A stretch of 64,000 bases of DNA from Ischnura elegans (Eukaryota; Arthropoda; Insecta; Odonata; Coenagrionidae). Below, one piece after another: positions 7,522 through 64,000 of this stretch; position 1 is the stretch's first letter; each line of letters begins with the position of its first letter. Location of the stretch: positions 8,446,607 to 8,510,606 of the forward strand of contig NC_060258.1 of assembly GCF_921293095.1 (NCBI RefSeq), written 5' to 3'. Below the pieces are notes generated by a model that saw only the letters and a program-made list of their open reading frames with translations, ran no database searches and was not told the origin of the DNA. A program made the position numbers and the translations under genes.

Positions 7522-8656
7522 ATGGCAGGTGTTGGTGACGCAGTGGAGGCAATCCTTTCTCTTGAAGAGGCTGTAGCACAAGATGGGGAGACTCAGCTTG
7601 AACTAGGGGCCAGAGATTCAACGGATGAATTGCGCCACCCCCAATCCAGTGATTTCGCTTCATTGCATGGTGATATCAACGCATTGCACAGAGAAATCAC
7701 TTCAAGGGATATTCTGCTCCGAAAACTGGAGGAGACCGTTACCAGATTATCTGAAGATATCGCTCCTCTGAAGGATTATGTGAAGGCAAAGATGCAGGAA
7801 GAGGCGCACAGTGCAATGTCTCAAACTTCAGGTTCATCTGACGGTGGCGCTAGTCAGGACGGAGACCAGGAAACTGAAGAAGAGAGAAATAATAGAGTCC
7901 AAAATAGATGTGTGGACGTGATGATGAGTCTCACGGAAATACGTGAGAATAACGAAGAAAAAACAAAGAAAGTCAGAGGTTTTTACGAGAAAATATACAA
8001 AGCATCCCCCTTCACGTCTCTTATGTTGACGTTCCTGGAGAGAAATCGGGGAGTGAAAGTACTGGTCGACTGTGATTCCTCCAATATCTCAAACTTATTG
8101 TTAGTAAAACGATTGGTTAACCTGGATGGTGAAAAATGTGATGTAAAATCTTTGAATAAGTTCGTTGACTTTAGTGGCTGCAGAGTTTTCTTGGCTGATG
8201 AAATAAGTTTTTTTTTAAGTTCTACTTTGGCGTACGAAGCTTTTGGCTATGCAGTTCCCCTGGCTCAGAGCTTGGCACAGATGGTGATGTACTTGATCTT
8301 CAAAAACCGAGGGTGTCCTTACGAGTGTGATGATGAAATGTACGAGAAACTGTACGAGAAAATTGTGGAGGAAGCATCAAAGAAAAAGGAGACCTCAGGG
8401 GAGGAGTTGGGTTGCTGGATAAAAAATGCCTTGAATATTAAAACACCTTCATAAGAGAGAAATATCATTGATTTCGGTCGTCCCGGCAATGTTGGTCAAG
8501 TACGGTTCGAAGGAAGGAATGTCGAAACTGCTGGAGCAGTTGCATTTACTCACGTTCTTCTTCATTCACCACGTGATTCCAAAAATAAGGAGCATAGTCA
8601 GTGAGGTACGTGACTCATTTGGTGAACATTTTATCAAAGCTAAGGACTTTTCATAA
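7522..8656 (+). pseudogene. Family G paralogue G1, frameshifted
   Basis: The function is unknown. I see a protein related to G2, G3 and G4, starting at the ATG five bases after a strong acceptor (TTTATTTCTCGGTGCAG). Residues 40-95 form a coiled-coil-like helix (LLRKLEETVTRLSEDI), residues 96-125 an acidic linker, and residues about 131-200 the conserved MMSLTEIR and FYEKIYKASPFTSLML block. Residues 205-244 share almost nothing with the paralogues. Alignment with G2 shows one extra base near 8440-8455, giving a stop at 8452-8454. The downstream part (ISVVPAMLVKYGSKEGMSKL) continues in another frame to 8656. A donor-like GAG|GTACGT lies at 8605/8606. The frameshift makes it a likely pseudogene, although sequencing error or an alternative end is possible. 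Confidence 0.75.
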
Positions 8657-8668
8657 ACTTTCACTTAA

Positions 8669-8858
8669 CCCATTATAACCCAATGTTGCTTCTAAGCAAC
8701 ATCAAAAATCTATAATTTATCATCTCTCTTTTGAAAATATCTAAGCAATGTATTATTTTGAGGTGTAAAGTTAAATGATGAGTGATAAATTTTAAAGTTT
8801 TTAATATTAAAATCTTGAAATTTGATTGCTTTCAGAAGCAGCTCAGGTTTATAGAGGG
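8669..8858. mobile_element. TTAA-flanked MITE, piggyBac-type ends
   Basis: The 190-bp element begins CCCATTATAACCC after TTAA (8665-8668). It ends TATAGAGGG before TCAA (8859-8862), and the second copy of the block preserves TTAA at 39355-39358. Termini starting CCC next to TTAA are typical of piggyBac-like elements. It has no coding capacity. Its left end is deleted in block 2. Confidence 0.55.
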
Positions 8859-9127
8859 TCAACACATTCAATGCTTCCTCAATTTTCAAAATTTGTCAGA
8901 ATAAAGTAAGAAAGAAAAATGGAGAAGTTTTGGCACCATAACTTCAATTCAAATGCCGCTATTTACAAACGGCGCACACGGTTCGAAAGAGAGGAGCTTG
9001 CTGAAGGCCGTACATACAATCGGAAGACTCGGAAGTGGAATATTGTTCACGTGCGGAGGCGGAGAAAGACCCCTCATTATTTCATTATTGCCTAAATCGA
9101 AAGATTATTACTCCTGGAGTACGTATT

Positions 9128-9690
9128 TCACGCACTTAGATTTCTAAATAACGATATCTATTTTTCGCGATTAAATGAAAAGTGAAATTTTCCAAGCGTG
9201 TGAAAATGCGACAGCTAAATAAGAATGCTGGGAAAAGCCTGTGTGACTTCATTCTGGTTCCTGCTTCTGCCGTGTGAGGTGACCTTGGGGCGAGGAAGAG
9301 GGCGCCGCTGCGATGCTACCTCTTGGTTTAAGTAAGAATTATTAATACCCTATCAAACGAAGGAAACTTTCCGAACTTAGCCATTTTTAATAGGTGATTT
9401 TTAAGAGATGTTTCCCTGAGCCCTGTGCCTAATGCATGCATTGGTAATCTCAGACAATGTAAAACTCCTCATGACTACTAGGTCCCTGTGGCGTCACGTG
9501 GAATGGCATCGCATGGGCGCCAATCTGGCCTTTTTCAAATGCGGTTAAAATTGACCTTTGCCATTCGTCTAAACTGGGATTTCTGAAACCAAATAGTTTG
9601 TATATTGTGAATACACTAATGGTGGGTAAGAAATCGCAATCAATGACTATATTTTTCTTTGAAGAAGGAATCGACCCCACAGCAGTAAAC
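9128..9690. repeat. Internal direct repeat, unit a
   Basis: This unit is an older, diverged direct repeat of 12885-13470 in the same block. Shared motifs include AATGCTGGGAAAA, GTGAGGTGACCTTGGGGCGA, CCAATCTGGCCTTTTTC and CTAATGGTGGGT. The same pair occurs in block 2 at about 39620-40150 and 44097-44690. The pair predates the block duplication. It could be LTR remnants or a tandem duplication; no LTR-type TG..CA ends were found. Confidence 0.7.
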
Positions 9691-9899
9691 TGTAGATTGC
9701 AACAGATGTTGATTGGGCAACAAATGAAGTCTTGAAAATCATAAGCAAAGCTAAAAACTGATTACCATGCAATGATATAATAACTAAGGGTAACAAAACA
9801 CAGTTTATTGCTCTGTATCTAATTCCTTGAAATGAGAACAAAGAGAGATGTGCGAGATTAGTCACAGCAAAGGGATATTTTCTCTAGATATTTCGTTTC

Positions 9900-10700
9900 T
9901 CCGTGCTAGCAATTCGAATTCATCTGCTTATCTCGTGAGAACTTCCTAAGATGGACTGAAAATAATGGACGCCTCCGGTTGTCCGCTAGCACTCGACAGT
10001 AGGAGTGGGGGTAAAGCGAGCTACCTGTTGAAAATAAGGAGTTGGATGAAGCCGAGTTTCAGATGGGCGTGCCGCTGAAATGGCGTTTCGTAAATAAGAA
10101 TGAATACATCAAACAGAAATCCATTGTAGCAGTGTAAATGCCGAGACGGCATGTCATCATTTTTTTGCGAGGTGGTGCGTACCCTTAGGATATTTGAAAG
10201 AGATGTCTACCGTGGGATAGATACATTAGCGCATTTCCCAAGATCATCTATCCCCCTCTATTCAGTACCCCCCCCCCCCCCTCTGAAGCTTTCCTCTTCT
10301 CCAAACTGAAAAAAGTCCCAGCGCGCACAAGGATCATATTTCGAAGGCTTCGAAAAAAATATCAAGATAAACTAGAACTATAGAAACGTGTTTTCCGCAC
10401 TTTTTCTCTCCCACTGACCCTTTTCAGCCTACCTGCTTCAATGTTCCCCATTTCTGGAGGTCAACCGCTGCATGAGTCATCTATTAGGATATTTGAAAGA
10501 GATGTTAGTTGTATCAACTATATGCCCAAATTGTTTCCATGAATTTAAAATAATCCAATAATCAACTAAATTCCTGTTTGAATCCTTTAAAGGAAATCTC
10601 AATTACGCGTAAAAATCCTGGGTTTCCTGCTGTATAGGTCGAACATTTCCGCATCCATCGTTTTTTTCGTCACCCCTGAAAACGATAGATCGAGGTTCCA
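9900..10700. repeat. Old dispersed repeat inside block 1
   Basis: This stretch contains GGGCGTGCCGCTGA, AAATGGCGTTT and CAGTGTAAATGCCGA motifs. They recur, more diverged, at about 32650-33100 and in block 2 at about 40430-41750. Poly-C at 10270-10280 marks a variable junction. No protein is encoded. The family was not recognised. Confidence 0.5.
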
Positions 10701-11021
10701 TCTTTGTACTAATACATCCAACAAGGGAAATAGAATAAAAAATCGTACGTTTAATATGCTTTGTGCAATTCTAGCATTCGAGGTATACGAGCATTGATTC
10801 GAATATTCGAGTTTGAGAAATCTGCTATTCGACCCAAATCTAATTTGAAGTATAACGTTTTCATTGTGAGTAATATCGTTCGAAAGTCGTGAACATCATA
10901 CATCACCTCAAATTATGTATAAATTTCGGTTAGTACACCTACTTATGTCGTAATTCCCCGTTAAACTCGGATAAATTTGTCCGTCAATGATGCGTGTGGA
11001 GTGCTACATAAATCCATTTAA

Positions 11022-11698
11022 CACTTTAAGTGCCGGCTGCTAAATTTAAAGCCCTACTGAAAAATCCAGCCATTTTTACTGTATTCGTACATTTTATAAA
11101 ACAGTAGCATTAAAAAATATTTCGACGTGCATTTTAATAAAAATGGACTTTGCTTTTCTTTATGATTGAGGTGAAAAACATTTAATGTCTTTTTTAAATA
11201 TATAATTTAACAATGAAAATCTACTGTTTTTTTTTAAATAAAAAAGTTGCAACATATGATGTACCGCTATAGCATGCATAATAATTTTTTTAAATACGCT
11301 TTATTTGAACAATATAAAGCATGGAAATCATAAAAGAGCATTGTTCCAAGAAAAAAATTATAAATCCTGGATGACAAAAAGGGTCAATGCACCCTCAACG
11401 AACGGTCCATTGGCCCAAAGAATTTTCACACCAAGTGGCCTAAGACGAGGATGCTGGTAGCTGCAGAGGACTTTTCGTCCTCAAGACATAAAGTGAACTC
11501 TTTTTCCATCGAGCAGTCGATTTTTTGAAAAAAAAAAAAAACAGGACCCCTAAGCAGTAAACTGGAAAAATACCATGGGCGAAATATAACGGCTTCACGC
11601 ATACAAAGTCAATTAAATGGAAAGACGTAATACTACGTCCATGGCAATCCTCAGAAGGATTAGCAGGACGTAATATTACGTCCATGGCTCGCAAAGCG
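11022..11698. mobile_element. 677-bp TTAA-type MITE
   Basis: The element begins CACTTTAAGTGCC after TTAA at 11018-11021. It ends GGCTCGCAAAGCG before TTGA at 11699-11702, and the two ends are imperfect inverted repeats. It contains GACGTAATATTACGTCC palindromes near its right end. The same element sits at the same site in block 2 (42168-42862). Block 3 lacks it at 62105-62135, giving an empty site. It therefore inserted before blocks 1 and 2 separated. TTAA targeting suggests a piggyBac-like helper. Confidence 0.65.
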
Positions 11699-12639
11699 TT
11701 GAATACGCGGTGGTGTGACAACAATACTCAAGGGCAGATTTGAAGATCCTCTTTCGTAACATTAAAAAAAAAAAACATTTGACACATGAAAATTTTATTG
11801 CAAAAAATACGCCGTTCCTTGCATATCTCATCACAATTTCCACCCAGAAATATTCTTGTTAAACATTTACCTCTGCTGCTAACCAACTGATTTTGTTTGG
11901 AGAGAAATCATAGGTATTTATGCAAGAATAAGTAAGAATATATCACTTCATTTATTAGAATCAAATTAAAAAATCATAAAGGTTTACATAATATAACAAC
12001 ATCCGTTTATGGTTGGCAACAGGTTTGAATAATATATGTATCAACCAACTGATATTGTCTTTCTTCTCAGCGACGAAAGACAGAAATAGCAAAAAAAAAC
12101 ATATGGCTTCAGGGCTAAATTGAAAAATCATGGCAATAAAAGAAAACTAAATCATTGTACAATGCATTCATTTGTAAAAATATGGATCTTGTAAGATCCG
12201 TATTGTATGTGAAACCATCAAACAAATTGTAATGAAGAAATTGCATCAAACAAATTATCATTACAATACATCATTGTCAAGATTAAGTACCTAGACATTG
12301 GATCTCATTGCCAGGGAATATAAGACACATTCGTAAGATAGGAGAATTAGGAATTAGTACAAAAATTGACTGAATACAATATACAGGTGTTACCAAGGAG
12401 AACATATGTTCTTTTTATTAGTGTAACACCTGTAGTAATGAAATAATGATTATAATTTCAGAATGCAGACATTATCCCACTAACATTGCATCTGAGCAGT
12501 TGTGCGATTTGTGATAAAGGCATTAAAAAATTAAAATGGCATGTTAAAATAAAAATAATAATGACACTAAAACAATAATATCCAACTTTGCACACATAGG
12601 TATTATATCAAACACCGGTTAGGTAGCATTTGCGAAGGC

Positions 12640-12804
12640 ATTGATTTATGTTGGCCAGTCACTGTTCAACTCCCGGTTCACCAAAATGACTGACGTGGAA
12701 TAAAATACGAATCTCTTCTTCGAGACAATGAATTTCAGGAACTTAAGAACAATAACTTCAAGGCACTCATCTCCGACGTTTTGTTGAAGGCACATTCTTC
12801 ATAC
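12640..12804 (-). other. Candidate 3' exon of family G (copy 1)
   Basis: On the minus strand a pyrimidine-rich tract GTTTCCTTGCTTCAACAG precedes GTATGAAG at 12804. The same acceptor and following sequence are conserved in block 2 (44019 downward). If the upstream G exon is spliced at its GAG|GTAAG donor in phase 0, translation would end after one codon (GTA TGA), so this would be mainly a 3' untranslated exon. Copy 1 carries about 10 extra bases relative to copy 2. No transcript evidence is available. Confidence 0.25.
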
Positions 12805-12884
12805 CTGTTGAAGCAAGGAAACAAAACAGATGTAACCAAATTGTCTGTGCTTGTCGCAATTCAAATTAACTGCGTGCAAATTTC

Positions 12885-13470
12885 ACGCTTTTAGATTTTT
12901 AAATGACGATATGTATTTTTTGTGATTAAATGAAAAGTAAAAATTTTTAAGCGTGCGAAAACGCGACGGCTAAGTAGGAATGCTGGGAAAACTCCGTGTG
13001 ACGTCCTTCTGGTTCCCACTGCCGAGAGTGAGGTGACCTTGGGGCGACGCTTTGAACGCATATACGACGCAGGATTCTAGCGGGTAGCAGAGTTCCCTAC
13101 TGGCTGGAAGCGCTTGGCTTAAATAAGGAATATTAATACCTTATCAAACGAAGACAACTTTCCGTCCTTAGCCACTTTTAATAGGTGATTTTTAAGAGAT
13201 GTTTCCCTGAGCTCTGTGCCTCATGCATGCATTGTTAATCTCAGACGATGTAAACTCCTATCCTCTGGTGTAGAAACTAAGTCCCTGTGACATCACGTGG
13301 AAGGGAATCGCATGAGCGCCAATCTGGCCTTTTTCAAATGAGGATAAAAATGGTCCATTGCCATTCGTCTAAACCGGTATTTCTAAAACCAAATAATGTG
13401 TATTATGAAAACCCTAATGGTGGGTGACGAATACCAATCAATGCATTTCGTTTTCTTTGATGAAGGAAAC
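12885..13470. repeat. Internal direct repeat, unit b
   Basis: This is the second member of the diverged direct-repeat pair whose first unit is at 9128-9690. Block 3 lacks this segment entirely: its sequence jumps from the equivalent of about 12700 directly to the 3' end of G4. Confidence 0.65.
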
Positions 13471-14027
13471 TACCCTATTCGGATTAAAAGACAAGTAATG
13501 CTGAGTAAAGGGATCGTTTTACTGCATGACATGACAAATGACCATGGTACTATAGAAAAGAGGTGACAATATTCAAACGCATTTTTTAAATTTTTCCAGA
13601 AACTGAAGTCTGTAAATTAGTGGGGGGGACTATTTTCTGAGGGGAACTATAATCAGAGAAATATGGTGTTCCATGAACCAGATAATACACAATATTATGC
13701 AAAAAGTCAACTCGTATATGTAAACATAAACGTGGATTTGAATACTGATCCCAATAATAATGCATGATGTAAAGGCACTTATGTTGTTTGCACGAATGAA
13801 AACTAAGCCTACTTACATACAATTTGTTTCAGCAAATAAAGAGATAATGCTGCTATTATAGAACAGGTTTCTACCATAATACTGATAGAAAATAGTTTTT
13901 TTCTTTCAGTTTATTATAATTGTACTTAAATGTGGCAACTTCAGTTTAGGTTCATAACTACATATATCAAACCTAAAAACTTATATTGTGAGCATTAACT
14001 ACATTTAAAATGCCTTAAAAATACTTT

Positions 14028-14225
14028 GTTTTTGTTTCAAGGAATCAGACACAGATCAATAAACTGTGTTTTGATTATATTAGGTACAATAAAATTCGAT
14101 GGAAATCAGTTTTTAGCTTTGTTTATGATTTAAAAGACTTCACAAGTTGCTAATAAGCACCACAAATTTCTCGGCCGACGACAATGGTATCAAAGAGAAT
14201 CTGTTGCAATCTAGAGTTGACTGCC
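14028..14225. repeat. 3' flank of G2, inverted copy at 9665-9835
   Basis: The stretch containing TTTCAAGGAATCAGACACAG and ATCAGTTTTTAGCTTTG is homologous to the reverse complement of 9665-9835. That places a related sequence in inverted orientation about 4.3 kb away in the same block, as expected if the block derives from two convergent gene copies. A ~22-bp direct repeat containing CGACRACAATGGTATCAA flanks the gene at about 14172 and 15422. Confidence 0.6.
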
Positions 14226-15338
14226 ATTAGTACATCTTTTAAGTGGATTTTTCATATAAAATCCTAAATTCTGATAATGTTCACCAAGTAAGTCTCTTAC
14301 CTCATTGACTATGCTCCTCATTTTGGGAATCACATGTTGCATGAAGAAGAGCGTGAGCAAAGGCACCTGCTCCAGCAGTTTCGACATTCCTTCCTTCGAA
14401 CCGTACTTGACCAGCATTGCCGGGACGACCGAAATCAACGATACTTCTCTCGCTAAAGATGATTTCATACTGAAGGCATGATATACATAGCCATCCATGG
14501 TCACTGAGTCCTTCTTCTGCGATGTTTCAAGCACAATTTTCTCATACAGTTTCTCATACATTTCATCACCACATGCATAAGGACATCCTCGGTTTTTGAA
14601 GATTAAGTACATCACTATTTGTGCCAAGCTCTGAGCCAGGGAAACTTCAGGGTCAAAACGTTCATCAACATATTGGCCCCTTTCATTTACGCTGATTACC
14701 CCAGCCTTACCTCCAGAGTATACCTTGCATTCAAAAATGTCAGCAAACGTAAGATATGCTGTTCCATTATGTTTTGCACCATCTAGGTTGACCAATCTTC
14801 CCACTAAGTTTGAGATATTGTTGGAATCACAATCGATTAGTACTATCACTCCACCATTTCTCTCCAGGAACTTCAACATAAGAGAGGTGAAGGGGGATGC
14901 TTTGTATATCTTTTCGTAAAAACCTCTGACTTTCTGTGTTTTCTCCTCGTTATTCATCCGTATTTCCGTGAGACTCATCATCACGTCAACATATCTATTC
15001 TGGGCTCTATTATTTCTCTCTTCCTCAGTTTCCTGGTCTCCGTCCTGAGGAGCGCCACCTTCAGGCGAGTCTGAAGATTGAGAACTTGCGTCGTCGTCCT
15101 CCTCTTCCATCTCTGCCGTCACATAATCCTTCACAGGAGCGATATCTTCAGATAATCTAGTGACGCTCTCCTCCAGTTTTCTGAGCAGAACGTCCCTTGA
15201 AGTGATCTCTTTGTGCATCTCGTCTCGCAGAGAAGCAAATTTGCTGGATAGGTAGTTGCGCAATTCATCCGTTGAATCTCTGGCTCCATCCTCTGGTTCC
15301 GATTTCCTCTTGAAGGTTTTCCTCTTTCCGTCAGCCAT
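14211..15338 (-). CDS. Family G protein G2, function unknown
   Basis: This is the most complete member (375 codons read to the first stop). The start is the ATG at 15338, five bases after an acceptor (TTTCTCGGTGCAG) conserved in G1 and G3, so a 5' untranslated exon probably lies upstream. Residues 5-12 are basic (KRKTFKRK). Residues about 40-75 form a heptad-like helix, 76-110 an acidic Ser/Glu/Asp linker, and 117-187 a conserved helical block. Residues 188-229 and 272-298 vary strongly between paralogues. Residues 230-270 (SLAQSLAQ, GCPYAC, MYEKLYEKI) and 299-345 (ISVVPAMLVKYGSKEGMSKL) are conserved. No signal peptide is seen. A GAG|GTAAGAG donor at 14301/14300 suggests splicing after residue 346, so the last 29 residues may be intron read-through. 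It matches no family I know. Confidence 0.75.
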   Translation of the reverse strand: MADGKRKTFKRKSEPEDGARDSTDELRNYLSSKFASLRDEMHKEITSRDVLLRKLEESVTRLSEDIAPVKDYVTAEMEEEDDDASSQSSDSPEGGAPQDGDQETEEERNNRAQNRYVDVMMSLTEIRMNNEEKTQKVRGFYEKIYKASPFTSLMLKFLERNGGVIVLIDCDSNNISNLVGRLVNLDGAKHNGTAYLTFADIFECKVYSGGKAGVISVNERGQYVDERFDPEVSLAQSLAQIVMYLIFKNRGCPYACGDEMYEKLYEKIVLETSQKKDSVTMDGYVYHAFSMKSSLAREVSLISVVPAMLVKYGSKEGMSKLLEQVPLLTLFFMQHVIPKMRSIVNEVRDLLGEHYQNLGFYMKNPLKRCTNGSQL

Positions 15339-15444
15339 TTCAACTGCACCGAGAAATAAAAAAAGAAATGCATCGAGTATGAGGGCTGCTCAGGAAATAA
15401 TGCACCACTCTAGTTTTCTCAACCGACAACAATGGTATCAATGA

Positions 15445-16920
15445 GTAAAATTACGTATGTATAGTGAGTCGACTTTACAGGATCTCAGGGCGGAGGGATG
15501 TTGGAAAATAAGCAGGTTGAATTCGATCAACGAAATGTTGGAAGGAACAAGGAAACATTGATTCACAAATGCAAACTCAGAAACGCATTTAATATTAAAC
15601 GAGCAACGTTTATTTCCATTGACGGTTACTAGGGGACTCAGATTTACTAACAAAGAATAAGCACACATTACATGCACGACCATAATCACCACTGGCAACA
15701 AATATAATCACACTATCAGACACAAGTTTTTTATGTAAATTATTGTAATTGCATCAACACACTGCATAAGGACTCTCTCTTGGTATTTTTCATTCTCTTA
15801 TCATGTTTAATGAACGCCGCACCAAATGACTGTTGGATATACGATCAATTAATTTTATTCAAGTTTTTAACCAGAAAGTTTAAAAATCATTCATATATGG
15901 GTAAAAGTGAGTATGAGTTGTGGAGACGGTGGCCATATTTATGTCATTAAAATATATTTGTGAATACAAGCGAAATACAGATGTATTTCTTATTTCAATT
16001 TCAGCTTTCATCGGCGAAGTATAGACGTTGGAAAATGGTTCACAATACATGAAAAATACAAATAATAGTTCCTACAAAGATCAAAACTAAAAGCAACATT
16101 AAAATTTTAAACAAAATTTTAAACCAACTCTTAAAACAAGAAAAAATGAAGGGTCAATATTTCGGCTCCACTGTCGCCATGAGCAACGCGAGTGAGTGGT
16201 ACAGTTGTATTCATTGCCATGTTAAACTCAGCTCTATTGGCATATCATTCGAGAACGGTCGATTGCAGGATCTCCGGCATCTATCCGAAGGAGCGCGTGT
16301 AAGAGACGCACCTTTTTTTCCAGAAATGGAATCGGAAATCGAGGGTGCGTCTCTTACACGAACTTCTCATCTTCCCCCCGTCGCAAGTCCAAGGGGAACT
16401 GAGTGGCCTTGGTTGTCAATGTGAGTCGGTCATCTGAAACTCTGGGTCAAAAACAAGCGGCAGGCAGTGGAGTTTCTCCCTCAGTTGCGTATTTTTAAAA
16501 TGTTCCTGTTTGCTTTTCTCACTCGTTAACACCGTGCCGTCGAGTCGGTAACTCAGAGGTGAACACGGAAATATATCGCGCGGGGTTTTTCGATCCGGAG
16601 TACACGCTAAATTTACTGCCACGAGTGGGCATCCCGCGGCATTTATACTGCAAACAGTAATCGCATATCAAACGTAGAGAAACGCGTAGTTTTGAAGGAC
16701 AATACCTGGTTAATCGTCAACATCTGTCTTGAGAATAAATTACAAATACGATAGGGACCTGATTTTTCAATCACCTTAATACGCTATTATGAAGATAATT
16801 GCAATTAAAAATTATATAGATGTCAAAAACTGTTGTTTTAAAAAATCGAATGGGTGTTTACATAGTCAGACTAAATGCACGGTTAAGATTATGAAAGGTC
16901 ACCAACGTTTCGGGTTCTAT
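15445..16920. other. Gene-free stretch with a perfect hairpin
   Basis: No gene is supported. At 16296-16360, CGTGTAAGAGACGCACC and its exact reverse complement form a 17-bp stem with a 31-nt loop. This could be a short MITE or a structured transcript. Confidence 0.5.
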
Positions 16921-19260: not shown

Positions 19261-19344
19261 GCAGCGAAACGTACGGCTAATATTGGTACTGCTTCCACTT
19301 TCTAATTACCGTTTTCGCAATAAATAAGACGTTTTTCATGAAAT

Positions 19345-25202: not shown

Positions 25203-25599
25203 AGGACCATAGCAAGAATTTTTATCATACAGACTGTCCCAAGGGTCGTGTGTCATTTTTGACCTGTAATTTTAGTAACTTCCCATGGAGCAATATTCAT
25301 GAAAATTGTCACACTTATGGGGAAAGGTCCTAAGTTTTGTTGACTGTAAGCAAAATTTTACAATTTTGACCTTTTGACCTCACAAAATGGGTCCAAACCA
25401 AAAATTTGAATTTGCCTTATGGGGTTTCAATGTTAAAAAAATCGAGATAGACAAAAGTGTGAATTTCATTGACCGATATGTCAATTATTAGGTTTTCGGA
25501 CACGAGAAACCCGAAAATAACACTTTTATTTACGAATATTCAACCGTTGACCCAGTAAGGTCACCGTCAAGGTCATAACCCACACAGCACATCGTTGCC

Positions 25600-39010: not shown

Positions 39011-39154
39011 TTCTTTGGTTGCTATGGAAGGTCTTATACTTTTTGTATGCCGCTTGCTACTTACGGTTCTTTTACTTTTCAATTGCGTAGATTAGATACC
39101 TATAGGTTATATTTCTCTATGTTCCTATGTATGGTTATATCCTATTTTCATTAT

Positions 39155-39220
39155 GAAACATGTGATTCCGAAAGTAAGGAGCATAGTCATTTAGGTAAGT
39201 GACTCATTTGGTAAACATTC
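39155..39220 (+). pseudogene. Family G 3' remnant (fifth copy)
   Basis: ATGTGATTCC, AGTAAGGAGCATAGTCAT and GGTAAGTGACTCATTTGG match the 3' end of G1 (8570-8625) including the splice donor. Everything upstream of about 39155 is replaced by unrelated sequence. This marks the left edge of block 2 and shows that it also once had a convergent gene pair. Confidence 0.75.
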
Positions 39221-40779
39221 TCTCTTTTGAAAATATCTAAGCAATGTATTATTTTGAGGTGTAAAGTTAAATGGAGAGTGATAAATTTTCAAGTTTTTAA
39301 TATTAAAATCTTGAAATTTGATTGCTTTCAGAAGCAGCTCAGGTTTATAGAGGGTTAACACATTCTATTGTGCCTGGTTTTTCAAAATTTGTCAGAATAA
39401 AGTAAGAAAGAAAAATGGAGAGGTTTTGGCACCATAACTTCAATTCAAATGCTGTTATTTACAAACGGCGCACACGGCTCGAAAGAGAGAAGTTTGCTGA
39501 AGGCCGTACATACAATCGGAAGACTCGGAAGTGGAATATTGTTCACGTGCGGAGGCGGAGAAAGGCCCCTTATTATTTCATTATATCCTAAATCGAAAGA
39601 TTATTACTCCTGGAGTACGTATTTCACTCACTTAGATTTCTAAATAACGATATCTATTTTTCGCGATTAAATGAAAAGTGAAAATTTCCAACCGTGTGAA
39701 AACGCGACAGCTAAATAAGAATGCTGGGAAAAGCCTGTGTGACATCATTCTGGTTCCTGCTTCTGCCGTGTGAGGTGACGTTGGGGCGAGGATGTGTGCG
39801 CCGCTGCGATGCTACCTCTTGGTTTAAGTAAGAATTATTAATACCCTATCAAACGAAGGAAACTTTCCGACCATAGCCAGTTTTCATATGTGATTATTAA
39901 GATATGTTTCCCTGAGCCCTATGCATGTATTGGTAATCTCAGACAATATAAAACTCCTCATGACTACTAGGTCCCTGTGGCGTCACGTGGAGTGGCATCG
40001 CATGGGCGCCAATCTGGCCTTTTTCTAATGCGGTTAAAATTGACCTTTGCCATTCGTCTAAACTGGGATTTCTGAAACCAAATAGTTTGTATATTGTGAA
40101 TACACTAATGGTGGGTAAGAAATCGCAATCAATGACTACATTTTTCTTTGATGAAGGAATCGACCCCACTGCAGTAAACTGTAGATTGCAACAGATGTTG
40201 ATTGGGCAACAAATGAAGTCTTGAAAATCATAAGCAAAGCTAAAAACTGATTACCGTGCAACGATATAATAACTAAGGGTAACAAAACACAGTTTACTGT
40301 TCTGTATCTAATTCCTTGAAATGAGAACAAAGACAGATGTGCGAGATTAGTCACAGACAAAGGGATATTTTCTCTAGATATTTCGTTTCTCCGTGCTAGC
40401 AATTCGAATTCATCTGCTTATCTCGTGAGAACTTCCTAAGATGGACTGAAAATAATGGACGCCTCCGGTTGTCCGCTAGCACTCGACAGTAGGAGTGGGG
40501 GTAAAGCGAGCTACCTGTTGAAAATAAGGAGTTGGATGAAGCCGAGTTTCAGATGGGCGTGCCGCTGAAATGGCGTTTCGTAAATAAGAATGTATAAATC
40601 AAACAGAAATCCATCGTAGCAGTGTAAATGCCGAGACGGCATGTCATCATTTTTTTGCGAGGTGGTGCGTCCCCTTAGGATATTTGAAAGAGATGTCTAC
40701 CGTGGGATAGTTACATTAGCGCATTTCCCAAGATCATCTATCCCCCTCTATTCAGTACCAGCCCCCCCCCCTCTGAAGC

Positions 40780-45536: not shown

Positions 45537-46586
45537 CTAGCTCCTCATTTTGGGAATCACATGGTGAATGAAGAAGAATGTGAGAAAAGGCATCTGCTCC
45601 AGCAGTTTCGACATTCCTTCATTCGAACCGTACTTGACCAGCATTCCTGGAACGACCGAAATCAATGATACTTCTCTCGCTAAAGATGATTTCATACGGA
45701 AGGCATGATATACACAGCCATCCATGGTCACTGAGTCCTTCTTCTGCGATGTTTCAAGCACAATTTTCTCGTACAGTTTCTCATACATTTCATCGTCACA
45801 AACGTAAGGACATCCTCGGTTTTTGAAGATCAAGTACATCACTATCTGTGCCAAGCTCTGAGCCAATGAAACTTCAGGGTCAAAATTTTCTTTTTTACAG
45901 TGGCCCCTTATATTTACGTTGATTACCCCAGACACACCTACCAAGTAAACCCTGCATTCAAAAATGTCGGCAAACGTTAGAAATTCTGTTCCATTCTGTT
46001 TTTCACCATCTAGGTTGACCAATCGTTTCACTAAGTTATTGATACTGAAGGAATCACAATCGATTAGTACTTTCACTCCACGATTTCTCTCCAGGAACTT
46101 CAACATAAGAGAGGTGAATGGGGATGCTTCGTATATCTTCTCGTAAAAACCTCTGACTTTCAGTGTTTTCTCCACGTTATTCTCACGTATTTCCGTGAGA
46201 CTCATCATCACATCTACACATCTATTCTGGGCTCTATTATTTCTCTCTTCTTCAGTTTCCTGGTCTCCGTCTTGATTAGCGCCACCTTCAGGCGAACCTG
46301 AAGATTGAGACCTTGCTGCACTGTGCGCCTCTTCTTGCATCTTTGCCGTCACATAATCCTTCAGAGGAGCGATATCTTCAGATAATCTTGTGACGCTCTC
46401 CTCCAGTTTTCGGAGCAGAACATCCCTTGACGTGATCTCATCTCGCAGAGAAGCAAAATCGCTGGATTGGTGGTGGCGTAATTCAGTAATTATATCTCTT
46501 ATCCCTTCTTCTAACTTGGCCAACCCATCTCGTGTTACAGCCTCTTCAACAGGAAGGATTTCCACTGTGTCTCCAGCACCTGCCAT
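45537..46586 (-). CDS. Family G protein G3, function unknown
   Basis: The chosen start is the ATG at 46586, five bases after the acceptor TTTCTAGGTGCAG. The frame is also open a further 11 codons upstream, but that part is intron sequence in the G1 and G2 alignment. The protein is about 349 residues: N-terminal heptad helix (LLRKLEESVTRLSEDIAPLK), acidic linker, conserved helical body, then KYGSNEGMSKLLEQMPF. It ends PKMRS and stop, because two bases present in G1 and G2 are missing. A GAG|GTAAGTGAC donor still follows downstream. The first variable segment (LVGVSGVINVNIRG) resembles G2 only partly; the second is close to G2. This is the best full-length candidate after G2. The family is unrecognised. 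Confidence 0.75.
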   Translation of the reverse strand: MAGAGDTVEILPVEEAVTRDGLAKLEEGIRDIITELRHHQSSDFASLRDEITSRDVLLRKLEESVTRLSEDIAPLKDYVTAKMQEEAHSAARSQSSGSPEGGANQDGDQETEEERNNRAQNRCVDVMMSLTEIRENNVEKTLKVRGFYEKIYEASPFTSLMLKFLERNRGVKVLIDCDSFSINNLVKRLVNLDGEKQNGTEFLTFADIFECRVYLVGVSGVINVNIRGHCKKENFDPEVSLAQSLAQIVMYLIFKNRGCPYVCDDEMYEKLYEKIVLETSQKKDSVTMDGCVYHAFRMKSSLAREVSLISVVPGMLVKYGSNEGMSKLLEQMPFLTFFFIHHVIPKMRS

Positions 46587-47008
46587 TTCAACTGCACCTA
46601 GAAATAAAAAGAAATGCATTCAGTATGAGGGTTGCCCAGCAAATAATGCACCACTATTGTTTTCTCATCCGACAAAAATGGTATCATTGTGAAATGTTAT
46701 GCATGCATAATCTGAAGTTCCATGGATCTGCAAGCAAACTTACTAGTTTTTCCGACTGATAGCTTAGCTGTATGACCATCTGTCAGTGAGATACATTACA
46801 AGCAGTGTACCTTCGCTGAATTTCTCATTGATGGGAAAGAAATTGTGGAGAATGTTCAATATACGTTTGTGCAAAGATTATGGAGCATCTACGGCCAACA
46901 AGATTGCAGTTATTCCCTGGGTTCAGAGGATGAGAGCGTCAGAAGGCAGTTTGTTGGTGCTTCAAGATTAACATCAGTCAGGGAGACCATTCACGGCTGT
47001 CAAACCTG

Positions 47009-58092: not shown

Positions 58093-58239
58093 CTACGTCC
58101 GCCTCTCGAGTGACGATGTTTCCCGATGTGTTCCAAGGGTTCCCCCATGATTTGCCACCTTTGTCACCCACCGCGCATTTCAATGGGTTTACAAAAGTCT
58201 CCACTTGAGTCGCTGATGGAAAAAGTGAGATATATATAT

Positions 58240-59089: not shown

Positions 59090-59423
59090 TACACAATAGT
59101 TTCTGTAATTTTGTGAAAAAAGCTCATTTATAAGTTCTTCCATTCACGTTTTAGGATGTAACCTATTTGTGTGGCTGACAATGAGACATCGCTAGAATGA
59201 TGTTCAGTATTAGAATGCCGATCTTATTTTCTGAAACGAAATAGGTGTGGTAGAAAAAAGTCACAGCTTTCTTCCACATAGGCCCGGGTGCGATTCTCAT
59301 CTTAAGATTTTGTAGTATAAGTTCCGTTGAGAATCTACTCCTGTCAAGTACCTCGATAGCCAAGGTTGTTAATTCTCTAGTTTCTCCATATTTCCGGTGC
59401 AACCGCGTCGGTTTGTTGGTGAT

Positions 59424-59461
59424 GACAACAGTTTCGCTGGCACTGCTGCCAGCGTCTTCAG
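59424..59461 (-). ncRNA. Hammerhead-like motif, inverted terminal copy
   Basis: On the minus strand: CTGAAGA, then CGCTGGCA and TGCCAGCG around a GCAG loop, then AAACTGTTGTC. CUGANGA...GAAAC with a minimal third stem ending GUC resembles the type I hammerheads found in Penelope-like terminal repeats. One C is extra before stem II and no convincing stem I is seen, so activity is doubtful. Confidence 0.35.
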
Positions 59462-59524
59462 GTCGAAGATGATGCCGGTCCACGATTTTCGTCCTCCTTA
59501 TATAGGGGGTCAGTCCCGCCAGTT

Positions 59525-60022
59525 GTGGCTGCCGCTCTCTTATTGGTCCGCCAAATGAGCCTCCTCCAATGGGCATCCAGATGGCTGCCCACAGCCAAAG
59601 ACAGACTACAGCACGACCTTCATGAAGGTGTTTACAAGGTCCCTTGCTCGTGTGGAAAAGCATACATCGGTGAGACTTGCCGTTCACTCAAGATACGGAT
59701 GCAAGAGCACCGAAGGGCAACGAAAAACAGGCAATTCCAGCTGTCTGCCATATCGGAGCACGCCTGGACCCCGGGACATGACATTAAGTTTGACGACGCC
59801 AAGGTAATAGTGAAAGAAGGCAGATATTTTCCCAGACTCATCCGCGAATCCATTGAGATAGCCCGGACGGACAATTTTAACAGAGACGACGGCTACCATC
59901 TGGATGCCCATTGGAGGAGGCTCATTAGGCGGACCAATAAGAGAGCGGCAGCCACAACTGGCGGGACTGACCCCCTATATAAGGAGGACGAAAATCGTGG
60001 ACCGGCATCATCTTCGACCTGA
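59525..60022 (+). CDS. GIY-YIG endonuclease of Penelope-like element, partial
   Basis: The domain begins near residue 28 of this open frame; the first part is read through the inverted terminal repeat and is not native. Visible motifs are GVY (35-37), CSC (41-43), YIG (47-49), an Arg-rich helix CRSLKIRMQEH (52-62), SEHAWTPGH (78-85) and LIRESIEIAR (105-114) with the expected catalytic Glu. The C-x-C between GIY and YIG plus the two downstream His match the Zn-binding arrangement of Penelope endonucleases. In intact elements it nicks the target for reverse transcription. It is open to a stop at 60020-60022, but without the reverse transcriptase it is an orphan fragment. Confidence 0.8.
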   Translation: MAAALLLVRQMSLLQWASRWLPTAKDRLQHDLHEGVYKVPCSCGKAYIGETCRSLKIRMQEHRRATKNRQFQLSAISEHAWTPGHDIKFDDAKVIVKEGRYFPRLIRESIEIARTDNFNRDDGYHLDAHWRRLIRRTNKRAAATTGGTDPLYKEDENRGPASSST

Positions 60023-60056
60023 AGACGCTGGCAGCAGTGCCAGCGAAACTGTTGTC
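60019..60056 (+). ncRNA. Hammerhead-like motif, direct terminal copy
   Basis: The same motif in direct orientation. It overlaps the stop codon of the GIY-YIG frame (TGA at 60020-60022). A third example is at 27667-27704 on the minus strand, where the loop differs but the stem is kept. Confidence 0.35.
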
Positions 60057-60154
60057 ATCACCAACAAACCGACGCGGTTGCACCGGAAATATGGAGAAAC
60101 TGGAACCTGAACACAGCGGAAATCTACGCAGTCACATTGTTAATTCTCTAGTTT

Positions 60155-60339
60155 GTGATCCTGTAATATGTAAGTCCTGGGTTCAAGACCACGTGAAGGC
60201 TAATTTTTTTTATGCCCTATAACTTTAGAAATCACTGTTGCAACTCATCCCTATTCGTTTAATTTAGTTTATTAGCGATTTTTTAAATGTTTATGTTAAT
60301 TCATGGATTTTTAGTTTTTATTTTATCCTACCCTTCATT
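60155..60339. other. Flank of the Penelope insertion, tRNA-like
   Basis: GTCCTGGGTTCAAGACC at 60175-60191 resembles a B box. Rejoining across the Penelope insertion puts CTCGATAGCCAAGG (59352-59365), which resembles an A box, about 50 bases upstream. The target may therefore have been a tRNA-derived SINE. Confidence 0.3.
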
Positions 60340-62046
60340 GAGGCTGGCGAAACCCTTCCCGTACCCTCCAGGAAGGAGAGGGCGTACCCACCGATGTTCT
60401 AAAATACCCTTCGTGTACCCTTGCTGAAGGGTACACTTATCCTTCCTGTACCCTTCATCGAGGCTGGCCAAACCCTTCCCGTACCCTCCAGGAAGGAGAG
60501 GGCGTACCCACCGATGTTGTAAAATACCCTTCGTGTACCCTTGCTGAAGGGTACACTTATCCTTCCTGTACCCTTCATCGAGGCTGGCCAAACCCTTCCC
60601 GTACCCTCCAGGAAGGAGAGGGCGTACCCACCAATGTTCTAAAATACCCTTCGTGTACCCTTGCTGAAGGGTACAGGAAGGGTACACTTATCCTTCCTGT
60701 ACCCTCATCGAGGCTGGCCAAACCCTTCCCGTACCCTCCAGGAAGGAGAGGGCGTACCCACCGATGTTGTAAAATACCCTTCGTGTACCCTTGCTGAAGG
60801 GTACACTTATCCTTCCTGTACCCTTCATCGAGGCTGGCCAAACCCTTCCCGTACCCTCCAGGAAGGAGAGGGCGTACCCACCAATGTTCTAAAATACCCT
60901 TCGTGTACCCTTGCTGAAGGGTACACTTATCCTTCCTGTACCCTTCATCGAGGCTGGCCAAACCCTTACCGTACCCTCCAGGAAGTCGAGGGCGTACCCA
61001 CCGATGTTCTAAAATACCCTTCGTGTACCCTTGCTGAAGGGTACACTTATCCTTCCTGTACCCTTCATCGAGGCTGGCCAAACCCTTCCCGTACCCTCCA
61101 GGAAGGAGAGGGCGTACCCACCAATGTTCTAAAATACCCTTCGAGTACCCTTGCTGAAGGGTACACTTATCCTTCCTGTACCCTTCATCGAGGCTGGCCA
61201 AACCCTTCCCGTACCCTCCAGGAAGGAGAGGGCGTACCCACCAATGTTCTAAAATACCCTTCGTGTACCCTTGCTGAAGGGTACAGGAAGGGTACACTTA
61301 TCCTTCCTGTACCCTCATCGAGGCTGGCCAAACCCTTCCCGTACCCTCCAGGAAGGAGAGGGCGTACCCACCGATGTTGTAAAATACCCTTCGTGTACCC
61401 TTGCTGAAGGGTACACTTATCCTTCCTGTACCCTTCATCGAGGCTGGCCAAACCCTTCCCGTACCCTCCAGGAAGGAGAGGGCGTACCCACCAATGTTCT
61501 AAAATACCCTTCGTGTACCCTTGCTGAAGGGTACACTTATCCTTCCTGTACCCTTCATCGAGGCTGGCCAAACCCTTACCGTACCCTCCAGGAAGTCGAG
61601 GGCGTACCCACCGATGTTGTAAAATACCCTTCGTGTACCCTTGCTGAAGGGTACACTTATCCTTCCTGTACCCTTCATCGAGGCTGGCCAAACCCTTCCC
61701 GTACCCTCCAGGAAGGAGAGGGCGTACCCACCAATGTTCTAAAATACCCTTCGTGTACCCTTGCTGAAGGGTACACTTATCCTTCCTGTACCCTTCATCG
61801 AGGCTGGCCAAACCCTTACCGTACCCTCCAGGAAGGAGAGGGCGTACCCACCAATGTTCTAAAATACCCTTCGTGTACCCTTGCTGAAGGGTACACTTAT
61901 CCTTCCTGTACCCTTCATCGAGGCTGGCCAAACCCTTACCGTACCCTCCAGGAAGGAGAGGGCGTACCCACCAATGTTCTAAAATACCCTTCGTGTACCC
62001 TTGCTGAAGGGTACACCTATCCTTCCTGTACCCTCAATGGAGGGTA
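60340..62046. repeat. 120-bp tandem array, 610-bp higher-order period
   Basis: About 14 units share GAGGCTGGCCAAACCCTTCC, GAGAGGGCGTACCCACC and TACCCTTGCTGAAGGGTACA. Spacing is exactly 120 bp in most units. A unit with an extra GGAAGGGTACA occurs at 60661 and 61271, 610 bp apart, showing five-unit blocks copied as a whole. Single-base variants (CCTTACCG, AAGTCGAGG, CGATGTTGT or CAATGTTCT) keep that order. The long open frames on both strands (up to 258 codons) follow from 120 being a multiple of three and are not taken as genes. Confidence 0.95.
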
Positions 62047-62083
62047 AACATCTCCTTAATGGAGGAGTTTATTTTTATCAGGG

Positions 62084-64000
62084 CTGCCAATGATGCGTTT
62101 GGAGGTTTACGTAAACTCATTTATATGCGTGGTGAGTGACAACAATACTCATTGTCAGAGGCAGATTTGAAGATCCTCTTGGGTAATATTCGTGAAACAA
62201 ACATTTGTCATATGAAAATTTTATTGCAAAAAATATGCCATCATTTTCATATCTGATCACATTTTTCACCCAGAAATATTCTTGGTAAACACTTACCACT
62301 GCCACTAACCAACTGATTTTCCTTGGAGAGAAATCATGGGTATTTATGCAAGAATAAGTAAGAATAAATCTCTTCTTTTATTAGAATTAAATTACAAAAT
62401 CATTTGAAAAAAAACATAATGGTGTACATAATATTAGAACCTCCGTTTATGGCTACCAATGGGTATGAAAAATACATTTATCAACCAACTGATATTGTCT
62501 TTCTTATCAGGGATGATAGACAGAAATAGCAAAAACCATATGGCTTCAAGGCTAAATTGACAAATCATGGCAACAAAAGAAAACTAAACCATTGTACAAT
62601 GCATTCATTTGTAAAAATATGCTTCTTGAAAGGTCCGTATTGTATGTGAAATCATCAAACAAATTATAATGAATAAATCGCATCAAACAAATTATCATTA
62701 CAATACATCACTGTCAAGATTAAGTACCTAGACATTGGATCTCTTTGCAGGAGAATGTAAGATACATCCATAAAATAGAAGAATTAACAATATGCACCTG
62801 CTAAAAATATACTGAATGTGGTTCATTCATTAAAAAATGAGTCTATCTTTCTTGCTGCCATTTTAGGTTAGGATAAATACAATATACAGGGGTTACCAAG
62901 AAAAAATGTTCTTTTTATTAGTGTAACACCTGAAGTAATGAATTAATGATTATAATTCTAGAATGCAGATATTATCGCACAAGCATTGCATCTGAGCATT
63001 TGTGCGATTTGTGATAAAGGCATTAAAAAATCACAATGGAATGTTATAACAGTAATAATAACACTATAACAATAATATCCAACTTTATATATAAAGGCTT
63101 TAACTCAAGCACCGATTAGGTAACAATTGCAAAGGCATTGATTCATGTTGGCCAGTCACTTTTCAACTCCCGGTTCACCAAAATGACTGACGTGGATATC
63201 ACATCGCATATCAAATAAGTCGATTTTTCATGAAGATTTCTGTATTCTGATGGAATAATTTAACAAGCAAGTCACTTACCTCATTCACTAGCTCCCCATT
63301 TTTGGAATCACATGTTGCATGAAGAAGAGCATGAGAAAAGGCATCTGCTCCTGCAGTTTCGACATTCCTTCCTTCGAACCATACTTGACCAGCATTCCTG
63401 GGACAACCGAAATCAACGATACTTCTCTTGCAAAATATGATGTCATGCTCAAGGCATCATTTATCAATTGGTCCACAGACGTCCCCGAGCTCTTCTTCTG
63501 CGATGTTTCAAGCACAATTTTCTCATACAGTTTCTCATATAGTTCATCGTCACACGCGTAAGGACAGCCTCGGTTATTGAAGATCAAGTACATCACCATC
63601 TGTGCCAAGCTCTGAGCCAGGGAAACTTCAGGGTCATAAATTTTGTACACATATCGACCTGTATTACTTTCATATACCTTCGATTTCTCAGCCTTACCTC
63701 CCAAGTAAACCTTGCATTGAAAAAAGTCAGTGAACGCATGAAATTCTGTACCATGCGTTTTTGCAGCGTCCAGGCTGACCAATCGTCTCACTAAGTTGGA
63801 GATATTGGAGGAATCACAATCGACAATTACTTTCACTCCACGATTTCTCTCCAGGAACGTCAGCATACGAGAGGTGAAGGGGGATGCTTTGTATATCTTC
63901 TCGTAAAAACCTCTGACTTTCTGAGTTTTCTCTTCATTATTCTCACGTATTTCCGTGAGACTCATCATCACGTCCACGCATCTATTTTGGGCTCTGTTAT
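62084..64000. repeat. Segmental duplication block 3 (partial)
   Basis: It continues the flank CAATGATGCG of blocks 1 and 2, lacks the 677-bp MITE, then matches about 11703-12700 and 42867-43920. It jumps near 63200 to the 3' end of G4, omitting about 1.5 kb that blocks 1 and 2 contain. It is more diverged from blocks 1 and 2 than they are from each other. Confidence 0.85.
63288..64000 (-). CDS. Family G protein G4, 5' end outside window
   Basis: The frame is open to the window edge, so the N-terminus lies beyond 64000. The visible part starts in the acidic-linker end (NNRAQNRCVDV), then MMSLTEIRENNEEKTQKVRG, FYEKIYKASPF and ISNLVRRLVSLDAAK. The first variable segment (GGKAEKSKVYESNTGRYVYK) and second (SSGTSVDQLINDALSMTSY) are unlike those of G1-G3. 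SLAQSLAQ, GCPYACDDELYEKLYEKI and VSLISVVPGMLVKYGSKEG are conserved. It ends PKMGS with a stop, as G3 does, before a GAG|GTAAGTGAC donor. The candidate downstream exon of the other copies is cut away here. The visible frame is intact. Confidence 0.75.
   Translation of the reverse strand, partial: NRAQNRCVDVMMSLTEIRENNEEKTQKVRGFYEKIYKASPFTSRMLTFLERNRGVKVIVDCDSSNISNLVRRLVSLDAAKTHGTEFHAFTDFFQCKVYLGGKAEKSKVYESNTGRYVYKIYDPEVSLAQSLAQMVMYLIFNNRGCPYACDDELYEKLYEKIVLETSQKKSSGTSVDQLINDALSMTSYFAREVSLISVVPGMLVKYGSKEGMSKLQEQMPFLMLFFMQHVIPKMGS

What the first reader, a model, noticed from the sequence alone, without database searches (positions are those of the whole stretch)
7522..64000. Paralogous gene family with two hypervariable cassettes
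G1-G4 are nearly identical over the coiled-coil, the MMSLTEIR..FYEKIYKASPF block, SLAQSLAQ..YEKLYEKI and the C-terminal KYGSKEGMSKL block. Yet residues about 188-229 and 272-298 (G2 numbering) are almost unalignable between G1, G2 and G4. Variation confined to two windows, in recently duplicated genes, is the pattern of an interaction surface under diversifying selection or of cassette exchange by gene conversion. The domain is not one I recognise. Possible roles are a recognition, effector or intragenomic-conflict protein; this is inference.
Basis: partly seen in the sequence, partly recalled or inferred. Interest (0 to 1): 0.8.

Follow-up and report, generated by a model that had tools for sequence, protein, structure and literature searches.

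The report
Fast-evolving damselfly chromosome 13 proteins
Most found members of a large damselfly gene family sit on what looks like its smallest chromosome, and in this cluster the proteins stay much the same except in a few short stretches, one of which natural selection is clearly pushing to keep changing, a pattern known from recognition proteins.

Summary
The window is chromosome 13 of the damselfly Ischnura elegans. It carries one intact family gene (G2), one ending at residue 342 (G4), one cut by the window edge (G5), one with a broken frame (G1) and a remnant. Three searches gave 166 loci, a lower bound; 157 lie on scaffolds C13-C17, 4.3% of the genome. In 24 of 37 cluster loci, dN/dS is 1.47 in HV1 (residues 188-229) and 1.20 in HV2 (272-298), against 0.21-0.54 in four conserved blocks. 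HV1 exceeds 1 significantly (omega 1.99; core 209-229, 3.1); HV2 as a whole does not. In 48 ankyrin-bearing relatives the two segments again lead in dN/dS, but partly through low dS, and likelihood puts both below 1. Distances in the 5' and 3' parts are uncorrelated, so paralogues seem to exchange sequence. The conserved domain matched nothing above cut-off. Best reading: a recognition family, constant scaffold with variable loops; immunity versus genetic conflict is undecided. AlphaFold failed (pLDDT 32), so the surface claim is untested.

The parts
7522..8454 (+). G1: family copy with a broken frame; open from Met (7522) to TAA (8452-8454), just after HV2
   Evidence: homologous C-terminal block lies in another frame at 8456-8632
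14211..15338 (-). G2: intact family copy, 375 aa if unspliced; a donor-like GAG|GTAAGA follows residue 346
15102..15221 (-). G2 residues 40-79, coiled-coil-like stretch, conserved (omega about 0.2)
   Evidence: coiled coil judged by eye, no predictor run
14778..15011 (-). G2 residues 110-187, conserved block 1 (MMSLTEIR..FYEKIYKASPF..VLIDCDS)
14652..14777 (-). G2 residues 188-229, hypervariable segment HV1
   Evidence: NG86 dN/dS 1.47 (0.97-2.29); partition omega 1.99
14652..14714 (-). G2 residues 209-229, HV1 core with the strongest positive selection (omega 3.1)
   Evidence: 11 of the 16 sites with posterior above 0.9 lie here
14526..14651 (-). G2 residues 230-271, conserved block 2 (SLAQSLAQ..NxGxPY..YEKLYEKI)
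14445..14525 (-). G2 residues 272-298, hypervariable segment HV2
   Evidence: NG86 dN/dS 1.20 (0.60-2.50); partition omega 0.87, not different from 1
14301..14444 (-). G2 residues 299-346, conserved C-terminal block (VVPAMLVKYGSKEGMSKL), up to the donor-like site
39105..40332 (+). G3: remnant of a family copy and its downstream flank; most of the gene is missing
45537..46586 (-). G4: family copy, open to TAG after the residue equivalent to 342; an in-frame upstream ATG (46617-46619) would add MHFFLFLGAVE
63288..64000 (-). G5: family copy, its 5' part lies beyond the window; the whole frame is open in the genome (L025, 361 aa from stop to stop)
8723..15463 (.). segmental duplication block, counterpart of 39219-46709 (89-96% identical in three pieces), carrying family copies with their flanks

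Best explanation
This is one tandem cluster of a large damselfly gene family found mostly on chromosome 13 and its presumed unlocalized scaffolds. SHOWN BY COMPUTATION: most copies examined keep open frames; their conserved blocks are under purifying selection, so they make protein that matters; in the cluster one short segment (HV1, core residues 209-229) is under strong diversifying selection and a second (HV2) is near dN/dS 1 with some selected sites; ankyrin-bearing relatives have raised dN/dS in the same two places, less sharply; distances along the gene fit exchange between paralogues. INFERRED: the proteins act inside cells, assemble through the coiled-coil-like stretch, and carry a conserved C-terminal domain whose two variable segments, one before and one after the SLAQSLAQ..NxGxPY..YEKLYEKI block, are loops of a binding surface. 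Each copy would bind a somewhat different, co-evolving partner; duplication adds receptors, selection alters the loops, gene conversion recombines them. MOST LIKELY PURPOSE (about 45%): intracellular recognition of pathogen or symbiont proteins, working like zebrafish NLR-B30.2 proteins but with an unrelated domain.
For: Copy number and place: 166 distinct loci from three searches, 157 on C13-C17 = 4.3% of the genome, about 390-fold denser than elsewhere. Open frames: 26 of 37 cluster loci have one ORF spanning at least G2 residues 16-311; 98 of 103 rows, a list of best matches, have no internal stop. Cluster, 24 copies: dN/dS HV1 1.47, HV2 1.20, coiled coil 0.21, block 1 0.26, block 2 0.31, C-terminus 0.54, N-terminal 0.52, linker 0.76, dS 0.18-0.45 (HV1 0.29, HV2 0.21). 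HV1 omega 1.99, core 3.10, both significantly above 1. M2a vs M1a, segments with their own trees: HV1 116.2, HV2 17.6, coiled coil 0.03, block 2 0.01. 15 of 70 HV sites but 1 of 233 others with posterior above 0.9. Ankyrin-type, 48 copies: dN/dS HV1 0.87, HV2 1.14; the other segments 0.17-0.54 except the 11-codon linker 0.86. Exchange: PHI-like 1 of 1000, 6 of 253 pairs, Spearman of 5' vs 3' distances -0.05 to 0.11. Analogue: zebrafish NLR-B30.2 genes, 75% on the repeat-rich chr4 long arm, positive selection plus gene conversion in B30.2 (PMC4852459, passages).
Against: No expression, no structure, no partner; the immune role rests on analogy. In the ankyrin subfamily HV1 and HV2 ratios are high partly because dS is lower there (0.30 and 0.29 against 0.38-0.62 elsewhere), raw pN of the C-terminus (0.207) and linker (0.266) is close to HV1 (0.220) and HV2 (0.269), and by likelihood HV1 (0.70) and HV2 (0.85) are significantly below 1 with the C-terminus at 0.73, above HV1; selected sites also occur in block 1 and C-terminus. 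In a trio on chromosome 10, HV1 is not raised (pN/pS 0.48; block 1 0.83); only HV2 is (24 versus 3 changes). The cluster's linker, block 1 and C-terminus also give M2a gains (11.3, 10.6, 6.6). Recombination can inflate site-model tests. Some copies, G4 among them, have an in-frame upstream ATG adding MHFFLFLGAVE, a short hydrophobic run, so an intracellular place is not certain. Concentration on one chromosome also suits a conflict or a purely mutational explanation.
Confidence: 0.5

Rival explanations
1. Intragenomic conflict: the family belongs to an arms race over transmission of chromosome 13 (drive elements and their suppressors, or proteins binding fast-changing chr13 repeats). The loops change because their DNA or protein partners on chr13 change.
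For: 157 of 166 loci on C13-C17; the corresponding small pair is lacking in Hetaerina titia and H. americana (PMC10838124, passages); Odonata chromosomes lack a typical centromere (PMC9784284, start of abstract); G2 starts with a basic stretch (MADGKRKTFKRK) that could be a nuclear signal (inference).
Against: No germline expression or drive data; eight loci on C2, C4, C5, C10 and C12, plus one on the unplaced scaffold C84; no DNA-binding family above cut-off.
Confidence: 0.25
2. Reproductive proteins (sperm, seminal or egg) under sexual selection or conflict.
For: Fast-evolving duplicated families are common in reproduction (general knowledge); the female colour-morph locus lies on an unlocalized chr13 scaffold (PMC10781644, passages); some copies have an upstream in-frame ATG with a short hydrophobic run.
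Against: No clear signal peptide or membrane segment after the inner Met of G1, G2, G4 (judged by eye, no predictor run); no expression data.
Confidence: 0.1
3. HV1 and HV2 are merely less constrained loops, and the rest is mutation and drift on a repeat-rich chromosome.
For: HV2 omega 0.87 is not different from 1, and ankyrin-type HV1 and HV2 average below 1.
Against: Cluster HV1 core omega 3.1, 2dlnL 146 against omega = 1; HV1 segment-tree test 116. Relaxation alone does not give omega above 1.
Confidence: 0.1
4. A transposable element or decaying repeat rather than genes.
For: Many copies with flanks, lying among satellites and inverted repeats; 11 of 37 cluster loci lack an ORF spanning the region.
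Against: 157 of 166 loci on five scaffolds; homologous flanks differ in extent from pair to pair; 98 of 103 rows open; purifying selection in the blocks; donor-like site kept in 20 of 26 copies.
Confidence: 0.05

Closest known systems
Zebrafish NLR-B30.2 family on the chr4 long arm (PMC4852459)
   Same: Hundreds of genes concentrated on one repeat-rich chromosome arm; positive selection in the recognition domain; gene conversion among paralogues (passages)
   Different: No NACHT, leucine-rich repeat or B30.2 match here; the domain is unmatched; immune function not shown
Ankyrin-repeat proteins
   Same: Distant family members carry an N-terminal stretch whose profile matches ankyrin repeats (best E 3.1e-18)
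   Different: The window's genes lack that part; single-protein Pfam ankyrin scores of relatives stay below the curated cut-offs
Zincin-type metallopeptidase domain in insect ankyrin proteins (recalled, from no call)
   Same: From memory, the order of elements resembles such proteins, with an HExxH helix where this family has SLAQSLAQ
   Different: 0 of 96 ORFs with the domain hold HExxH; recall only, so at most a dead relative
MATH/F-box adapter families of nematodes and TRIM5-type restriction factors (recalled)
   Same: Conserved scaffold with positively selected loops in a duplicated family
   Different: No such domains above cut-off

Membership tests
NLR immune receptors | NACHT/NB-ARC domain and leucine-rich repeats | tested here: not met
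   no such Pfam family at E up to 1 (3 window proteins) or up to 0.1 (7 relatives)
Ankyrin-repeat proteins | two or more ankyrin repeats | tested here: inconclusive
   no Ank family for G1, G2, G4; in relatives Pfam Ank below cut-off but the profile matches designed ankyrins at 3.1e-18
Zincin metallopeptidases | HExxH zinc site | tested here: not met
   0 of 96 domain ORFs from 94 loci; L095 and L096, fetched later, were not in that scan
Transposable element | dispersal over the genome | tested here: not met
   157 of 166 loci on C13-C17
Transposable element | fixed ends, terminal repeats, target-site duplications | tested here: inconclusive
   duplication ends differ between pairs; no search for terminal repeats per copy was made
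Recognition multigene family (by behaviour) | many paralogues, conserved scaffold, dN/dS above 1 in restricted loops | tested here: met
   met for HV1 of the cluster, only partly for HV2 and for the ankyrin type
Recognition multigene family (by behaviour) | variable segments exposed on one face | tested here: inconclusive
   AlphaFold on 4 window sequences gave pLDDT 32
Recognition multigene family (by behaviour) | expressed, with a partner | not testable with these tools
   no RNA-seq or proteomics available

The most novel reading that the evidence does not exclude
Chromosome 13, the smallest damselfly autosome, is an arsenal: it carries well over a hundred copies of one gene family with a previously undescribed domain, diversified loop by loop by selection and gene conversion, either as an insect intracellular recognition repertoire comparable with fish NLR-B30.2 arrays or as the molecular side of a conflict over keeping that chromosome, which some damselflies have lost.
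Probability: 0.3. Interest if true: 0.88.

Novelty: new variant of a known kind. Interest (0 to 1): 0.7.

Why it matters
The origin of the smallest chromosome pair of dragonflies and damselflies has long been debated (PMC7596019, passages). A family of at least 157 loci on what appear to be its scaffolds gives that chromosome candidate content to test, in a species where it also carries the female colour-morph locus. If the loops recognise pathogens, this is a large intracellular recognition repertoire in an insect, built on a domain that matched no library searched here above cut-off. Hetaerina, which lacks a counterpart of this chromosome, offers a natural experiment.

Tried and rejected
Domain libraries: Pfam on three window proteins and seven relatives, NCBIfam and PADLOC on G2 and three relatives: nothing above a curated cut-off; PADLOC, which prints no cut-off, gave PDC-M72A at 3.3e-5 and 8.5e-5 over the ankyrin part of two relatives. 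PHROGs was not searched. PDB: no significant relative of G2 (best E 0.32); the profile of eight members gave, in the 60 rows shown of 418, entries named as ankyrin or designed-ankyrin proteins or known to contain ankyrin repeats. No relative in viral contigs or prokaryote genomes; these collections are not of insects, so this says little. AlphaFold with the four window sequences failed, so no fold search was made and the second job was not used. Transposon and decay readings were rejected (see rivals). The first partition fit for HV segments (omega 1.00) was an optimiser fault, the start at log 1 did not move; one search replaces it. One search lost 12 of 48 ankyrin copies through a faulty filter, corrected. 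One search stopped on a print error after the PHI-like test; one search completed it. The 18S rDNA search, meant to tie C13-C17 to the m-chromosome, did not complete, nor was a family search with an ankyrin-type query, so the copy number is a lower bound from three searches.

Rows dropped before counts. Cluster: 37 loci; 30 came as loci L001-L030; the other 7 appear only in pieces and were not fetched. Of the 30, 26 had one ORF spanning the region; L006, L028, L029 (G1) and L030 were left out as broken, L020 and L027 as truncated, giving 24; L018 (near-identical to L017) was dropped for likelihood work, giving 23. Ankyrin type: 48 used, 41 for likelihood after removing 7 near-identical copies. 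They were picked from the upper part of the lists; rows with internal stops were passed over or left out (two not fetched, L044 fetched but unused because its frame is broken), which favours intact copies. L039, L046 and other divergent members were used only in alignments and in the chromosome 10 trio.
Full report
WHERE IT IS. The window is G000:C13:8446607-8510606 of a genome of 1,722,721,009 bases in 110 contigs. PMC10781644 (passages) says chromosome 13 consists of a main scaffold and several unlocalized ones (1-4 are named), one of which carries the female colour-morph locus. That C14-C17 (18.8, 11.9, 11.1 and 10.3 Mb) are those scaffolds is my inference. If so, the chromosome is about 73 Mb, the smallest autosome but not tiny. 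PMC10838124 (passages) calls it the m-chromosome of I. elegans and reports that it has no counterpart in Hetaerina; the cytogenetic checklist, however, has '-' in its m-chromosome column for I. elegans (PMC7596019, passages).

WHAT IS IN THE WINDOW. G1 7522-8454 (+, broken after HV2), G2 14211-15338 (-, intact), a remnant at 39105-40332 (+), G4 45537-46586 (-, TAG after residue 342) and G5 63288-64000 (-, cut by the window). They lie in segmental duplications: 8723-15463 corresponds to 39219-46709 in pieces 89-96% identical, and 62129-64000 matches parts of both. G2 aligns with G4 at 81%, with G5 at 75% and with G1 at 65% up to its frame break, and all align by codon, so 'almost unalignable' overstates it.

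FAMILY SIZE. G2 as query gave 109 rows, a chromosome 10 member 103 rows, a chromosome 2 member 118 rows. Merging starts within 2.5 kb leaves 166 loci: C13 72, C17 43, C14 28, C16 12, C10 4, C15 2, and one each on C2, C4, C5, C12 and the unplaced C84. C13-C17 hold 157 of 166 in 4.3% of the genome. The tool states that counts of large families are lower bounds. The window's subfamily forms 37 loci between 8.12 and 10.43 Mb of C13; 26 have one ORF spanning at least G2 residues 16-311, 11 are broken or in pieces. In one search, 98 of 103 rows had no internal stop, but that is a list of best matches.

ARCHITECTURE. Distant members have an N-terminal ankyrin-like part (profile match to designed ankyrins at E 3.1e-18; Pfam single-protein scores below cut-off), then a coiled-coil-like stretch and the same C-terminal domain. 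The window's subfamily lacks the ankyrin part. Across eight divergent members the invariant positions are T124, R138, Y141, D169, G187, Y207, N249, G251, P253, Y254, G313, L328 and V336. A donor-like GAG|GTA[AC]G follows the coding exon in 20 of 26 cluster copies; of the other six, L003, L010, L017 and L018 show a variant of it, and for L021 and L027 the script looked at a wrong site. The inner Met of the cluster copies follows FLFLGAVE; in some copies, G4 among them, an upstream ATG is in frame.

SELECTION, CLUSTER COPIES. Nei-Gojobori on 24 copies (276 pairs): residues 13-39 omega 0.52, coiled coil 0.21, linker 0.76, block 1 0.26, HV1 1.47 (bootstrap 0.97-2.29), block 2 0.31, HV2 1.20 (0.60-2.50), C-terminus 0.54. 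Synonymous differences are alike in HV1 (0.237) and block 1 (0.224). Twelve independent nearest pairs give pN/pS 0.36 for flanks, 1.18 HV1, 1.34 HV2. Limiting to the 21 copies with equal HV1 length gives 1.39 against 0.31. My own codon likelihood on a FastTree tree (23 copies): M2a over M1a 2dlnL 163.5, with 7.5% of sites at omega 3.8; sites with posterior above 0.9 are 15 of 70 in HV and 1 of 233 outside (Fisher p 1e-9). Fitting each part separately: HV1 1.99 (2dlnL 74 against 1), its core 209-229 3.10 (146), 188-208 1.08, HV2 0.87 (not different from 1), linker 0.60, the rest 0.39. With a tree per segment: HV1 116.2, HV2 17.6, linker 11.3, block 1 10.6, C-terminus 6.6, coiled coil 0.03, block 2 0.01. 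The two null segments show that the test does not simply fire on recombining data, but the small gains in three other segments mean that only HV1 is secure.

SELECTION, SECOND SUBFAMILY. In 48 ankyrin-type copies from C13-C17 and C84: N-terminus 0.33, ankyrin 0.17, spacer 0.54, coiled coil 0.25, linker 0.86, block 1 0.34, HV1 0.87 (0.60-1.24), block 2 0.28, HV2 1.14 (0.76-1.59), C-terminus 0.54. Here dS is lower in HV1 and HV2 (0.30, 0.29) than elsewhere (0.38-0.62), which raises their ratios; by pN the order is HV2 0.269, linker 0.266, HV1 0.220, C-terminus 0.207. By likelihood HV1 0.70 and HV2 0.85 are significantly below 1 and the C-terminus is 0.73. M2a gains are largest for HV1 (83.6), then block 1 (48.7), C-terminus (38.9) and HV2 (35.7), and nil or small for ankyrin, coiled coil and block 2. 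Selected sites are enriched in HV (10 of 66 versus 13 of 317, Fisher p 0.002). So the pattern is repeated, weakly and less sharply. In a trio on chromosome 10, HV1 is not raised (0.48) and HV2 is (2.15, 24 versus 3 changes).

EXCHANGE. Incompatibility among sites within 100 bases is as low as observed in 1 of 1000 permutations. Six of 253 pairs share significantly long identical tracts (97-141, 112-151, 138-285, 235-272, 243-283, 268-306; the third is a close pair), not only in the HV segments. Distances in the 5' part (coiled coil plus linker, block 1) are uncorrelated with those in HV1, block 2, HV2 and the C-terminus (Spearman -0.05 to 0.11), while within each part they correlate at 0.24-0.45.

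FUNCTION. What is shown is a selected protein family with one clearly diversifying segment in this cluster, a second variable one, and signs of exchange among paralogues. The rest is inference. The layout resembles zebrafish NLR-B30.2 genes, 75% of which sit on the repeat-rich chr4 long arm and diversify B30.2 by positive selection and gene conversion (PMC4852459, passages). The domain itself matched nothing above cut-off (PADLOC only in the ankyrin part). I recall insect ankyrin proteins with a metallopeptidase-like domain of similar layout; no copy read here has HExxH (0 of 96 ORFs), so I file it under nothing. AlphaFold on four sequences was uninformative (pLDDT 32).

IN PRINT. The rows shown by searches of the held library include no paper whose title or abstract start names this family; PMC10781644 holds no occurrence of ankyrin in its main text, and PMC5381652 only notes that ankyrin-containing entries are abundant in Calopteryx (passages). 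The library lacks most subscription journals and preprints, and RefSeq annotation was not available.

I corrected the copy numbering, the distance of the TAG from the donor, the strength of the ankyrin-type replication, the m-chromosome status, the counts of broken copies and the upstream ATG.

Noticed in passing
19338-21189 and 23430-24411: Two arrays of the same 72-base satellite (also read as 144, 216 and 360), with a higher-order pattern.
   Followed up: no
60329-62034: 120-base tandem repeat, 14 copies, 94% matches, open over 240-282 codons on both strands; GC 51% (60001-62000) between 2-kb windows of 45% and 36%.
   Followed up: no
30301-31458: 140-base repeat arranged as a large inverted repeat (87% over 891 bases), next to a 376-base stretch (31482-31857) 98% identical in inverted orientation to 25203-25578.
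   Followed up: no
59376-60104: 209-base inverted repeat, 99% identical, overlapping an ORF (59426-60022) that from memory looks like a GIY-YIG nuclease of a Penelope-type element; Pfam gave no match at 0.01.
   Followed up: partly
14024-14150, 45243-45369, 9717-9843, 40206-40332: 127-base block downstream of the family genes, 78-83% identical between the two types of copy, with stops in every frame; possibly a 3' untranslated exon.
   Followed up: partly
L035 and L036 (C16 and C14): Relatives on two different scaffolds are 99.3% identical over 3.47 kb; with L034 and L037 they have an interruption with internal repeats before GKADW where other members are continuous, a possible intron gain.
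   Followed up: no
L092 (C16:9374843-9377500): Family ORF of at least 787 residues (856) in which a module of about 45 residues (RQECVDAML..) is repeated before the C-terminal domain.
   Followed up: no
46617-46619 and equivalents in L009, L010, L017, L018, L022, L026: Upstream in-frame ATG in G4-type copies, adding MHFFLFLGAVE or nearly so; in G1 and G2 the stretch before the inner Met has no in-frame ATG.
   Followed up: partly
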